NCBI GenBank assembly: GCA_021324685.1 | Contig: JAJPIQ010000044.1 | Coordinates: 81,066 to 121,795 of the forward strand | DNA from: Bacteroidota bacterium | GTDB lineage: Bacteria > Bacteroidota > Ignavibacteria > Palsa-1295 | DNA: 40,730 bases | Direction of reading: 5' to 3' | Part shown: positions 6,529-13,895 of the stretch, piece by piece | Position numbering within the stretch: the stretch's first letter is position 1 | Layout of the letters: each line of letters opens with the position of its first letter | The notes under the pieces: model-generated | What the model was told of the DNA's origin: nothing | Database searches by the model: none | Seen by the model: the letters and a program-made list of their open reading frames with translations, nothing else | Position numbers and translations under genes: made by a program

Positions 6529-7206
6529 TTACTGAAATTTTAGCTGAAAAACGCCCGGCCGTTTTTCGTCGAGCGAGCGAATAACGCTCGTGACTTTACC
6601 CAGAATCTGAAAATCGATGTCTGCGGTGATCGGGATTGGTTTGAAGCGGTCGTTGGCAGGTTCAAGGAAGGTCCCTTTTTTCGTTTGGCGAAATGTCTTC
6701 ACGGTCGCCGAGTCGTCAAGGCGAGCCACGATAATTTCACCGTCATTGGCCGTCGGCTGCTGCCTGACGATAACGAGATCGCCATCCATAATACCCTTGT
6801 TCTTCATACTTTCACCTTGTACGCGAAGTCCGAAGGTCTTCCGCGAAAGGTCCATGGGCTTGAAGGAAAGCCAGCCTTCGACGTTTTCAATCGCGAGGAT
6901 CGGCTCTCCCGCCGTGACTCGCCCAATAACGGGTATCGCGTTTGTATGACGCGTGCCCCCGATATTGACAGATGGTCGAGCGACCATAATTGCCCGTGAA
7001 AGCCCAGGGCCACCGCGCACCAAAAAGCCTTTTTTAAGCAGGGCGTCCAGGTGCTTGCGGACGCCGAACGTCGAATTAACGCCGAGAAAATCGGTAATTT
7101 CGGAAATCGACGGTGGATAGCCGGAGATTTCCAAGTATTCTTCAATATAGTCAAGGACACGACGCTGCTGCCTCGGTAGAGCGTCACGATCGAGTATGGC
7201 GGCCAT
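6529..7206 (-). CDS. lexA: LexA SOS repressor
   Basis: A 225-residue transcriptional repressor that self-cleaves when RecA is activated by single-stranded DNA. The N-terminal winged helix-turn-helix spans residues 10-65 (SISEITDFLGVNSTFGVRKH is the recognition region). The autolysis site is A99-G100 in RVTAGEP. The catalytic dyad is S133 in GESMKNKG and K170 in ATVKTF. The start at 7206 (MAAILDRD) is preferred over one 60 bases upstream because GAAAGGAAC precedes it as a Shine-Dalgarno and because the added residues are unlike the family. Region 7246-7362 upstream carries a consensus-type promoter and two palindromic elements that could mediate autoregulation. Confidence 0.95.
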   Translation of the reverse strand: MAAILDRDALPRQQRRVLDYIEEYLEISGYPPSISEITDFLGVNSTFGVRKHLDALLKKGFLVRGGPGLSRAIMVARPSVNIGGTRHTNAIPVIGRVTAGEPILAIENVEGWLSFKPMDLSRKTFGLRVQGESMKNKGIMDGDLVIVRQQPTANDGEIIVARLDDSATVKTFRQTKKGTFLEPANDRFKPIPITADIDFQILGKVTSVIRSLDEKRPGVFQLKFQ

Positions 7207-7245
7207 GATGTTCCTTTCAAAAAAGAAATTTATCTTCGATGAACC

Positions 7246-7271
7246 GTGCCATTTTAATCGAATCATGGCAC
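7246..7271. promoter_or_regulatory. Inverted repeat in the lexA leader
   Basis: A perfect 7-base inverted repeat, GTGCCAT (7246-7252) and ATGGCAC (7265-7271), separated by 12 A/T-rich bases. It lies between the lexA promoter and the start codon at 7206. The geometry suits either a dimeric repressor site or a weak hairpin in the 5' UTR. It is not obviously related in sequence to the other palindrome at 7282-7297 except for the GTGC/GCAC ends, which both share. Confidence 0.4.
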
Positions 7272-7297: not shown

Positions 7298-7333
7298 TTG
7301 CTGGATGTAGCAGGTGCCCATCAAAGCATGGGC

Positions 7334-10465: not shown

Positions 10466-12178
10466 ATGCCGCACGATATCTTTCTTTCCTACTCTCGAAA
10501 AGACGCCGCCCATGCCGACGATTTGACCGCACGTTTGCGGGACAAAGGATTGGACGTGTGGATTGACCGACAAGGGATCGAAGGCGCCGAACGATGGGCA
10601 ACGGAGATCGTCGAAGGAATTCGCGCCTGTTCGACTTTCATGGTGTTGTTATCTCCGAACAGTATCGAGTCTGAACATGTTTTAAAGGAACTTTCGTTGG
10701 CGTCGGAAAAACGCAAGCGGCTGCTCCCGGTCGATCTTGCGCCAACAGAGTTGCCGTCCTCGTTCGAATATGCGCTCGCGGGTTTGCAGCGCGTGCCGAT
10801 TTCCGATTTCGAAGGAATTCTTCGTGCTCATCAACATGGAGTCGAGCGACAAAAGACCAAGGACGATCGAAAATCGCTCATCATTTTGCCATTTGAAGAT
10901 TTATCGCCGGCCATTGAGGACAATACCTGGTTTGCCGACGGTCTTACCGGCGAACTCATTAGTGCGCTCTCGAAAATTAAGAGCCTTCGCATTCCGGACC
11001 TCAAAACATCGATGGACCTCAAACGCTATCATGGAAGGACGACGGATATCGCTCGAGAACTTAGCGTCCGGTATTTTATTCAAGGGACGGTTCGCAAATT
11101 CGGGCCGCAGATCAAAGTAGGGTTGGAACTTTTGGATATCGAGACCGGCGATTATCTCTGGCAGCATTCATATCGGGGCGAGTTCAAGGATATTTTCGAT
11201 ATTCAGGAGGCTATCGCCAATGAAGTGGCCATTGGGCTTAAGCTTCACTTAACGAAAGAAGAATCGGAACGAGTGGGAGATCGGCGCACTGCGAACGCCG
11301 AGGCATACGAACTTTTTTTACGTGCCGGACAGTATTCGCGGCTTAATACGAAGGAGAATTATGAGTACGCCTTAAAACTCTATCTGGAAGCGATTCAGCT
11401 TGATCCGCAATTTGTCGATGCCCTTGCGTGGGCTGCCAATGCCCATATGGCCCTCTATCGTGCCTATGATCGCAATCGGCTGCGACTGGAGACCGCCGAG
11501 ACCTTAATATTTCGTGCACTGGAATTCGATCCCGATTTCGATGAAGCATTGATTATGTTAAGCCGTCTTCGAATGTATCAGGAACGTCTCGAAGAGGCGG
11601 AACGTCATGCGCTTCAAAGCGTGGAACTCAGTCCCGGCAATCAAAATGCGCATTTTGCGCTCGGTTTTTTTTATTACAATACGGGTCGACCCGAAAAAGC
11701 AATTTCCCCTTATGAAAAAACGATTGCGCTCATGCCAGGTTATCATACGGCGCATTGGAATTTGGTCGCTGCATTCGAACGGATTGGGAATAAAGAAGCC
11801 GCACGAGAAGCTGCGCTACGTGCCATTCCGCTCTTCGAATCACGATTACGGTTGGCCCCGGACGATGAGCATGCCCATGTCTATCTCGCGAACCTTTATT
11901 ACATAGCCGGTCAAATGCAAAACGCTTCGCGCGCGTTGCGCGAACTTAGTGACGCACATGATGGAGATTCGTTGTACAACCTTGGCTGTCTTGCATCCCG
12001 ATTGGGCCAGTTCGACCTTGCGCTGGATTTTCTCGTTAAAGCCCGTGACGCCGGCTTTGTGCGCCTCGAAACATTCCTCCAGGATCCGGATCTCGATCCA
12101 TTACGCACATTGCCGGCGTTCGAGAATCTTATCGAATCGCTGAGATCGTCCCCCCAGCCCAATTCTGCCCATGCCTGA
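10466..12178 (+). CDS. TIR domain / TolB-N-like domain / TPR protein, copy 1
   Basis: A 570-residue soluble protein of three parts. Residues 1-120 are a TIR domain (DIFLSYSRKD, WIDRQGIEG, then VLLSPNSIESEHVLKEL with the Glu at position 75 that is the catalytic position in NAD-cleaving TIRs). Residues 136-270 are the TolB N-terminal-like/FlgO-like domain (COG5616) with LPFEDLSP, WFADGLTGELISAL and LDIETGDYLWQ, often seen fused to signalling domains. From about 280 onward are tetratricopeptide repeats ending in a Sel1/TPR-like tail. There is no signal peptide or membrane segment. The start is the ATG at 10466; an upstream GTG-type start at 10436 would lie in the hairpin loop. It overlaps copy 2 by 8 bases. 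The role is unknown: an NADase or a scaffold, possibly in stress or defence signalling. Confidence 0.88.
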   Translation: MPHDIFLSYSRKDAAHADDLTARLRDKGLDVWIDRQGIEGAERWATEIVEGIRACSTFMVLLSPNSIESEHVLKELSLASEKRKRLLPVDLAPTELPSSFEYALAGLQRVPISDFEGILRAHQHGVERQKTKDDRKSLIILPFEDLSPAIEDNTWFADGLTGELISALSKIKSLRIPDLKTSMDLKRYHGRTTDIARELSVRYFIQGTVRKFGPQIKVGLELLDIETGDYLWQHSYRGEFKDIFDIQEAIANEVAIGLKLHLTKEESERVGDRRTANAEAYELFLRAGQYSRLNTKENYEYALKLYLEAIQLDPQFVDALAWAANAHMALYRAYDRNRLRLETAETLIFRALEFDPDFDEALIMLSRLRMYQERLEEAERHALQSVELSPGNQNAHFALGFFYYNTGRPEKAISPYEKTIALMPGYHTAHWNLVAAFERIGNKEAAREAALRAIPLFESRLRLAPDDEHAHVYLANLYYIAGQMQNASRALRELSDAHDGDSLYNLGCLASRLGQFDLALDFLVKARDAGFVRLETFLQDPDLDPLRTLPAFENLIESLRSSPQPNSAHA

Positions 12179-13895
12179 TATTTTTATCTCCTATTCGCGA
12201 AAAGATTCGGAACCCGCGCTCGTCCTTGCCGAGCGTTTGCGGAGTCAGGGGCTCGATTGTTGGATCGATCAGCGCGGGATCGAAGGTGCGGAGCGATGGG
12301 CAACAGAAATCGTCGAAGGAATTCGAGCGTGTCCGACGTTCCTGGTCCTGCTTTCACCGAATAGCGTCGCTTCCGAGCATGTGCTAAGGGAACTATCGAT
12401 CGCCTCCGAAAAGCGGAAGCGGTTGTTGCCAGTCGATCTTTTGGCAACGGAACTCCCAGCGTCGTTCGAATATGCTCTTGCCGGATTACAACGCGTTGCC
12501 ATCGGCGATTTCGAAGGTATTGTTCGAGCGCATGCCCACGGCGTGGAACATGTCAATATTCGGGACGACCGAAAATCGCTCATGATCCTTCCCTTTGAAG
12601 ATCTGTCTCCGGCGGAGGAAGATAACACGTGGTTTGCAGATGGAATTACCGGAGAACTGATCAGCGCACTTTCTAACATCAAGAGCCTGCGTATTCCGGA
12701 CCGGAAAACGTCCATGGAATTGAAAGGCTTTCGCGGAAGGACCAGTGAAATTGCACGAGAGCTCGATGTCCGCTATTTTATCGAAGGCAATGTCCGAAAA
12801 TTCGGCGAGCAGATCAAGATTAGCCTGGAGCTCTTAGATATCGAGACCGGCGATTATCTCTGGCAGCATTCGTTCCGTGGGGAATTTAAAGATATTTTCG
12901 ACATCCAGGAACAAGTCGCGAACGAAGTGGTCCATGGCCTCAAACTGCACTTAACGCATGAGGAAGAACGCAAAATAAACGATCACGGGACCGAAAATGC
13001 CGAGGCCTATGAGCTCTATGTAAAGGGAAAAGAATATCTGGTTCGCCAGACGAAACAGGGCTTCCTGCTCGGAATCCAATTGTTTACCGAAGCCATCGGC
13101 CTCGACCCGAAGTTCGCCGATGCCTATCGACAAAAAGCGAGTGCACTCACCATTCAATACCGAAATTACGACCGCAATCCTCACCTGCTGAATGAAGCCG
13201 AACGACTCGCCAAAGAGTCGCTTCGCTTAAGGCCGGACCTCTATTCTGCGTATTTCGCTCTCATGTCCATCTATCTTTACCGAGGAAAGCTCGAGGAAGC
13301 GGAATTGATGGCAAAAAAGTTTGTCGAGAAAGATCCCGAAAACTTTTTAAGCCATTTCTCGCTCGGATTTTTCTATGGGGAGATCGGTCAGCATGCCAAA
13401 GCCATTGCGCCGTTCGAAGAGACGGTTCGGCTGCGTCCGGATTATCTGGAATGTATTGTCAATCTGGCGATGGCCTGTGATGAAGCTGGCGAAAAAGCAA
13501 AGTGCGCCGAGTGGGCGGAGTTCGCTCTGCCACAACTGGAACATTACCTGAAACTTCATCCCGACGATGAAGCGAAGCGTGTTGAGTATGTGACGCTGTT
13601 ATTCTGGAGCGGCAGGAAACAGGAAGCGCACCGCCTTCTGATGGAACTGAAGGATGTGGCCCGGGATGGATTTTCGCTGTATATGATCGCTTCTCTCTTT
13701 GGCGATCTGGACGATGGTTCTCGGGCTTTGGAATCGTTCCGCCGTTCGCTCGACGCCGGCCTTCAGGATATTCGTCCTCTGCAGTCGTTTCTCGCGCATC
13801 CGGTTTTCAAGCCGTTTCATGGAACTCCCGAATTCGATAACCTTGTGAAGAGCGTCGAGCATATAGCCAAAACTTCCGGCCAGGAGACTCTGTAA
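12171..13895 (+). CDS. TIR domain / TolB-N-like domain / TPR protein, copy 2
   Basis: A 574-residue paralogue of the preceding protein with the same three-part plan. Its TIR domain begins DIFISYSRKD and retains the candidate catalytic Glu at 74 (SEHVLREL). The TolB-N-like domain follows at about 133-268 and TPRs from about 278. The first 270 residues align with copy 1 almost without gaps and with most positions identical, and a 35-base stretch is identical at DNA level (11135-11169 and 12837-12871). The TPR halves are only loosely similar. Its ATG lies within the end of copy 1 (ATGCCTGA overlap), so the two are translated as a coupled pair and may work as a heteromer. The gene arose by tandem duplication. 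Confidence 0.88.
   Translation: MPDIFISYSRKDSEPALVLAERLRSQGLDCWIDQRGIEGAERWATEIVEGIRACPTFLVLLSPNSVASEHVLRELSIASEKRKRLLPVDLLATELPASFEYALAGLQRVAIGDFEGIVRAHAHGVEHVNIRDDRKSLMILPFEDLSPAEEDNTWFADGITGELISALSNIKSLRIPDRKTSMELKGFRGRTSEIARELDVRYFIEGNVRKFGEQIKISLELLDIETGDYLWQHSFRGEFKDIFDIQEQVANEVVHGLKLHLTHEEERKINDHGTENAEAYELYVKGKEYLVRQTKQGFLLGIQLFTEAIGLDPKFADAYRQKASALTIQYRNYDRNPHLLNEAERLAKESLRLRPDLYSAYFALMSIYLYRGKLEEAELMAKKFVEKDPENFLSHFSLGFFYGEIGQHAKAIAPFEETVRLRPDYLECIVNLAMACDEAGEKAKCAEWAEFALPQLEHYLKLHPDDEAKRVEYVTLLFWSGRKQEAHRLLMELKDVARDGFSLYMIASLFGDLDDGSRALESFRRSLDAGLQDIRPLQSFLAHPVFKPFHGTPEFDNLVKSVEHIAKTSGQETL

What the first reader, a model, noticed from the sequence alone, without database searches (positions are those of the whole stretch)
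10466..13895. Tandem, overlapping pair of TIR / TolB-N-like / TPR proteins
Two genes that overlap by 8 bases encode proteins of the same three-domain plan: a TIR domain with the putative NADase glutamate retained (SEHVLKEL and SEHVLREL), a COG5616-type TolB-N-like domain, and TPRs. Bacterial TIR domains are known to cleave NAD or make NAD-derived signals in defence systems such as Thoeris. I know of no described system made of two such paralogues side by side. They may act as a heteromeric sensor-effector, with the TPR halves detecting something. The function is inference.
Basis: partly seen in the sequence, partly recalled or inferred. Interest (0 to 1): 0.7.

Follow-up and report, generated by a model that had tools for sequence, protein, structure and literature searches.

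The report
Recombining tandem TIR receptor gene family
The two neighbouring genes are real, but they are one small cluster of a fast-changing bacterial family (up to about two dozen copies per genome, often head to tail) in which a conserved TIR 'output' domain is repeatedly re-joined to different repeat 'sensor' domains, so the pair looks like one signal on two different sensors rather than a two-part machine.

Summary
Genes 10466-12178 and 12171-13895 overlap by 8 nt (ATGCCTGA), are 58% identical, and each encodes a TIR domain with the catalytic-type Glu, a TolB-N-like domain and TPRs. The 'pair' is not the unit. All 12 sampled relatives from the same (Kapabacteria-like) family also carry the family, up to 24-25 copies per genome; half lie in head-to-tail clusters of 2 to about 10, half are single. 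The 8-nt overlap recurs at 15 junctions. The TIR Glu is kept in 85/85 full-length copies. TIR, middle and TPR trees conflict about tenfold more than a split-half control. In the window pair, residues 1-268 are homogenised while the TPR halves belong to different lineages. Sister families carry similar tandem arrays with a Ser/Thr-kinase head on the same module. No constant partner gene, defence island, phage carriage or ThsA-type effector was found. Best reading: modular cytosolic TIR receptors diversified by recombination, probably NAD-consuming. An immune role is plausible but unproven; a fixed heteromeric pair is not supported.

The parts
10466..12178 (+). gene 1: TIR / TolB-N-like / TPR protein, 570 aa
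   Evidence: ORF; Pfam; AF2 model pLDDT 90, pTM 0.70
12171..13895 (+). gene 2: paralogue, 574 aa, 58% identical to gene 1
12171..12178 (+). 8-nt overlap ATGCCTGA: stop TGA of gene 1 lies inside codons 1-3 (M-P-D) of gene 2; same junction type at 15 places in the family
10466..10840 (+). gene 1 TIR domain (aa 1-125)
10688..10690 (+). gene 1 Glu75, catalytic-type TIR glutamate, invariant in 85/85 full-length family members
10865..11275 (+). gene 1 TolB-N-like alpha/beta domain (aa 134-270)
11297..12148 (+). gene 1 TPR superhelix (aa 278-561); nearest relative G005_C1_156, not gene 2
12171..12542 (+). gene 2 TIR domain (aa 1-124)
   Evidence: boundaries by alignment
12390..12392 (+). gene 2 Glu74, catalytic-type TIR glutamate
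12567..12977 (+). gene 2 TolB-N-like domain (aa 133-269)
   Evidence: by alignment to gene 1
12999..13859 (+). gene 2 TPR region (aa 277-563); nearest relatives G002_C99_33377/35118
10466..11269 (+). segment (aa 1-268) homogenised with gene 2 (12171-12971): likely gene conversion or recombination tract
6529..7266 (-). lexA; a TIR-TolB-N-TPR gene lies next to lexA in six relatives, and the pair lies 3.2 kb away here
7312..7329 (+). motif AGGTGCCCATCAAAGCAT conserved upstream of lexA in relatives; not found near the pair

Best explanation
The pair is a two-gene cluster of a lineage-specific multigene family of soluble cytosolic TIR receptors. Each protein is a modular one-component switch. The C-terminal TPR superhelix senses something (probably a protein or peptide); the TolB-N-like domain, as in CadC, links sensing to the output; and the N-terminal TIR domain, when clustered, cleaves NAD+ (depleting it or making an ADP-ribose-type signal). 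The genes multiply by tandem duplication, often joined by the ATGNCTGA stop/start overlap so that translation is probably coupled. They diversify by intragenic recombination, which re-joins TIR and TolB-N fronts to different TPR halves; in this pair a similar front is attached to two TPR sensors of different lineages. The most likely role is a varied repertoire for detecting biological threats such as phage, ending in NAD loss or a stress response. Shown: architecture, arrays, overlap, conserved Glu, mosaicism, kinase-headed counterparts. Inferred: cytosolic sensing, NAD cleavage (about 0.75), translational coupling (about 0.6), immune role (about 0.5).
For: Architecture and fold. Glu invariant 85/85, together with F6, S8, Y9, W32, D34, W44, I48, S69, P88 and Y102. 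Closest solved TIR folds include the NADases SARM1, SPARTA TIR-APAZ and AbTir (VIA Z 16.6, 16.5, 14.3). Middle domain plus TPR resembles the CadC sensor (TMt about 0.65). Expansion and arrays. Mosaicism: delta lnL 1723-1752 for TIR data on a TPR tree against 117-179 in the split-half control; window pair Fisher p 1.4e-6, max-descent p <= 1e-4; AU test rejects the pair as a TPR clade, p 1.8e-4. Same sensor module with other outputs: Ser/Thr kinase arrays in sister families, cyclases in rhizobia.
Against: No defence neighbours, constant partner, phage copies or STALD effector (the STALD search had a silent control). dN/dS is below 1 in every domain (TPR mostly about 0.2-0.5), so no direct sign of diversifying selection. 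The Trp of the WxxxE motif of many TIRs is replaced by His or Asn. Kinase-headed arrays in sister lineages suggest that the sensor module serves general signalling, not only immunity. In TIR data alone, the alternative grouping of gene 1 with G005_C1_156 is not rejected (p 0.32).
Confidence: 0.55

Rival explanations
1. General (non-immune) signalling family: TIR is simply an alternative output on a common TolB-N/TPR regulatory module, sensing envelope, metabolic or stress cues, like kinase- and cyclase-headed relatives.
For: Same module on kinases in tandem arrays, on cyclases in rhizobia and in CadC; no defence context; purifying selection.
Against: Copy number varies from a few to about 25 in one family with turnover, fragments and domain swapping, which is unusual for a housekeeping sensor.
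Confidence: 0.3
2. Obligate two-gene heteromeric sensor-effector system.
For: Adjacent, overlapping, co-directional, both with intact Glu; a second pair in the same genome.
Against: Half of copies single, clusters 1 to about 10; TPR halves not sisters and partners not conserved; single gene at the equivalent lexA locus in G005.
Confidence: 0.07
3. Catalytically inert TIR scaffold: the TIR domains only drive oligomerisation.
For: Trp of the WxxxE motif lost; several solved matches are scaffold TIRs such as MyD88 and MAL.
Against: Glu and other conserved TIR residues invariant in 85/85; best matches include NADase TIRs.
Confidence: 0.12
4. Largely neutral duplication: arrays grow and decay without selected function.
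For: Fragments and frameshifted copies exist.
Against: dN/dS well below 1 in all domains; most copies are full length with an intact TIR.
Confidence: 0.04

Closest known systems
Thoeris with several ThsB TIR sensors (type I)
   Same: TIR proteins; several diverged TIR sensors side by side (ThsB1/ThsB2 in S. aureus, PMC12578639; B. cereus copies 18% identical, PMC7272460)
   Different: No ThsA or other fixed effector found beside the genes; sensors here are TolB-N/TPR fusions; clusters up to about 10; PADLOC ThsB models match only the TIR part, weakly
Ser/Thr kinase-TolB-N-TPR proteins in other families of the same class
   Same: Collinear TolB-N + TPR module (426 aa, 32% identity, E 3.7e-58) and tandem arrays of up to four
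   Different: Kinase head in place of TIR; no such kinase found in the window's genome
Rhizobial adenylate/guanylate cyclase-TolB-N-TPR proteins
   Same: Same C-terminal module, 27-32% identity
   Different: Cyclase head
CadC
   Same: TolB-N-like plus helical sensor (3ly7-3lya, TMt about 0.65)
   Different: Winged-helix DNA-binding output and periplasmic sensor (own knowledge); here TIR output and no membrane helix
SARM1 / SPARTA TIR-APAZ / AbTir
   Same: TIR fold and Glu
   Different: Different sensors (ARM, Argonaute; own knowledge) and no multigene arrays
Plant TIR-NLR clusters (analogy, own knowledge)
   Same: TIR output with a variable repeat sensor, tandem clusters, recombination between paralogues
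   Different: No NTPase (NB-ARC/STAND) domain in these proteins

Membership tests
TIR domain (TIR_2, PF13676) | profile match over the curated cut-off and TIR fold | tested here: met
   80.5 and 77.7 bits against cut-off 28; VIA Z 16 to SARM1 and SPARTA TIRs
TIR NADase | catalytic Glu at the conserved position | tested here: met
   85/85; aligned with PdTIR Glu
TIR NADase | NAD+ cleavage | not testable with these tools
   needs an enzyme assay
Thoeris | ThsB TIR next to a ThsA effector (SIR2/TM with SLOG/STALD or macro) | tested here: inconclusive
   no STALD in 12 family genomes, but the control genomes were silent; no constant neighbour gene; macro-type ThsA was not searched genome-wide
Thoeris | full-length match to ThsB models | tested here: not met
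   PADLOC ThsB and NCBIfam ThcB4 match only TIR residues, weakly; ThcB4 below cut-off
TolB-N/CadC-like sensor module (COG5616-type) | TolB-N fold followed by TPR | tested here: met
   Foldseek TolB top hits, CadC, collinear kinase homologues; COG5616 itself was not searched
STAND/NLR receptor | NTPase (NB-ARC/STAND) domain | tested here: not met
   no NTPase family in Pfam; the middle domain is TolB-N-like
Defence-island system | enrichment near known defence genes | tested here: not met
   91 neighbouring ORFs: only generic matches; no formal background rate was computed

The most novel reading that the evidence does not exclude
A bacterial counterpart of plant R-gene clusters: tandem arrays in which TIR output domains and TPR recognition domains are continually re-paired by recombination, giving each species its own repertoire of NAD-consuming intracellular receptors for phage or rival molecules.
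Probability: 0.35. Interest if true: 0.82.

Novelty: new variant of a known kind. Interest (0 to 1): 0.58.

Why it matters
Bacterial TIR defence is usually described as small operons with one or two sensors. A family with up to about 25 paralogues in one genome, tandem arrays and domain re-pairing would be a rare example of a large, recombining repertoire of receptor-like proteins in bacteria. The natural experiment in this class (same sensor module, kinase head in one lineage, TIR head in another) also gives a direct way to ask what the TolB-N/TPR module senses and how it transmits.

Tried and rejected
SOS control: lexA lies next to a family member in six relatives, and a motif (AGGTGCYCRTNAAAGCAY) is conserved upstream of lexA. 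It also occurs upstream of lexA where no TIR gene is adjacent, is absent at the other arrays, and in the window's genome only the lexA copy matches without mismatches; looser matches (28) do not exceed the reversed-pattern control (54). So a TIR regulon under LexA is not supported. One clade of lexA-linked genes: rejected (AU p 4e-7), so the locus changes occupants. Positive selection: pairwise dN/dS below 1. ThsA-like STALD effector: none, control silent. Phage carriage: none. Rfam or tRNA features in the window: none. Within-genome homogenisation of TIR as a general rule: the mean TIR-minus-TPR identity difference is the same within and between genomes (0.17 and 0.16), so homogenisation is local.

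Full report
What is there. The two ORFs are as described: 10466-12178 and 12171-13895, same strand, overlapping by ATGCCTGA. They are 58% identical. Both have TIR_2 and TPR matches. A model of gene 1 (pLDDT 90, pTM 0.70) shows TIR (1-125), a short low-confidence linker (128-132), an alpha/beta domain (134-270) and a TPR superhelix (278-561). Structure searches place the TIR with SARM1, SPARTA TIR-APAZ, ThsB and AbTir, the middle domain with TolB, and middle plus TPR with the CadC periplasmic sensor.

It is a family, not a pair. The genome has 6-7 copies, among them a second tandem pair with the same 8-nt overlap. All 12 sampled relatives of the same taxonomic family have members: about 108 copies in the 12 genomes examined in detail (the window's own included), 54 in head-to-tail clusters and 54 single. 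The longest run is about ten genes (G004, contig C5; the script counts nine up to a 217-nt gap). In 149 genomes of the class, full TIR-TolB-N-TPR matches occur only in this family. Single or few copies occur in Rhodanobacter, Qipengyuania, Caulobacter and others, and three in a row in a gammaproteobacterial MAG.

The overlap. Proteins start M-[P/A/S]-D-IFISYS; the DNA ATG-NCT-GA(T/C) carries a TGA in another frame, which serves as the stop of the preceding gene. It recurs at 15 junctions; another 12 junctions are -4 to +4 nt. Coupled translation is an inference.

Conservation. The catalytic-type Glu is present in 85/85 full-length copies, with Phe6, Ser8, Tyr9, Trp32, Asp34, Trp44, Ile48, Ser69, Pro88 and Tyr102; it aligns with the Glu of PdTIR. 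Pairwise dN/dS is below 1 everywhere, usually lowest in the middle domain and higher in TPRs.

Mosaicism. Domain trees conflict: TIR data on a TPR tree lose 1723-1752 log units, while two halves of the TPR columns lose 117-179 against each other; shared splits are 9 of 76 against 27 of 76. Pairs show sharp changes of identity at domain boundaries, e.g. TIR 96% with TPR 52%, or TIR 54% with TPR 78%. In the window pair, gene 1 agrees with gene 2 over residues 1-268 (37 versus 12 informative sites) but with G005_C1_156 over the TPR part (81 versus 43; Fisher p 1.4e-6). TPR data reject the pair as a clade (p 1.8e-4). TIR data group them (SH-aLRT 85), although the alternative is not rejected. So one front end, two sensors.

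Surroundings. Neighbours are housekeeping or T9SS-type secreted proteins; PADLOC gives only generic matches. A notable exception is lexA: in six relatives a family member is its immediate neighbour, and here the pair is 3.2 kb away behind a Kelch and a multicopper oxidase gene. The window locus is syntenic with G005 (M16 peptidase, lexA, TIR, FAD oxidase). The occupants are not one clade, so the place is conserved but the content turns over. LexA control is not supported.

Other outputs on the same module. In sister families, ~709-aa Ser/Thr kinases in arrays of up to four carry a collinear TolB-N/TPR region; rhizobial cyclases do too. The window's genome has no such kinase. The output head has therefore been exchanged on a shared sensor module; the direction of the exchange was not tested.

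How it works (inference). TPRs bind a trigger, TolB-N relays, TIRs cluster and cleave NAD+. Immunity is favoured by the copy-number turnover and re-pairing, and opposed by the lack of defence context, the purifying selection and the kinase-headed relatives. I put immune or conflict use at about 0.5, non-immune signalling at about 0.3.

Limits. Most genomes are MAGs, so cluster lengths at contig ends are minima and copy counts approximate (differ by one or two for some genomes). Arrays were seen in an assembly of few contigs too (G007, about 10 contigs). The tree-conflict measure uses short-search trees; the split-half control was run the same way.

Noticed in passing
L011:8693-10168 (-) (G000:C69) and relatives in L154, L175, L182, L170: A separate single-copy clade (five genomes, support 100) has a membrane helix between TIR and TolB-N/TPR, i.e. 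a receptor with cytosolic TIR and probably periplasmic sensor; never in arrays.
   Followed up: partly
L214, L215, L216, L217: Tandem arrays of Ser/Thr kinase-TolB-N-TPR genes in sister families of the class, seemingly the counterpart of the TIR arrays.
   Followed up: partly
window:6529-7329 and L143, L147, L150, L152, L163, L171: lexA is flanked by non-orthologous members of the TIR family in several genomes; a palindrome-like motif GTGCYC-N6-AGCAY is conserved upstream of lexA.
   Followed up: yes
L152:7746-8126: A 126-aa ORF that joins a degenerate TIR start (MVDILVYSSNNDAGQ...) to what looks like a T9SS-type C-terminal sorting tail; possibly a recombination scar.
   Followed up: no
L139:5923-6474, L136:4196-4717, L189:5022-5480: TIR-only short genes next to or near arrays (about 150-180 aa); truncated remnants or stand-alone TIR proteins.
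   Followed up: no
L094, L096, L101, L102, L105: Tandem TIR(-TPR) genes without TolB-N in rumen Bacteroidales and a Chloroflexi MAG.
   Followed up: no
window:7420-10367: Kelch-repeat and multicopper oxidase genes, both with T9SS-type tails, overlapping by one base and lying between lexA and the pair only in this genome among those examined.
   Followed up: partly
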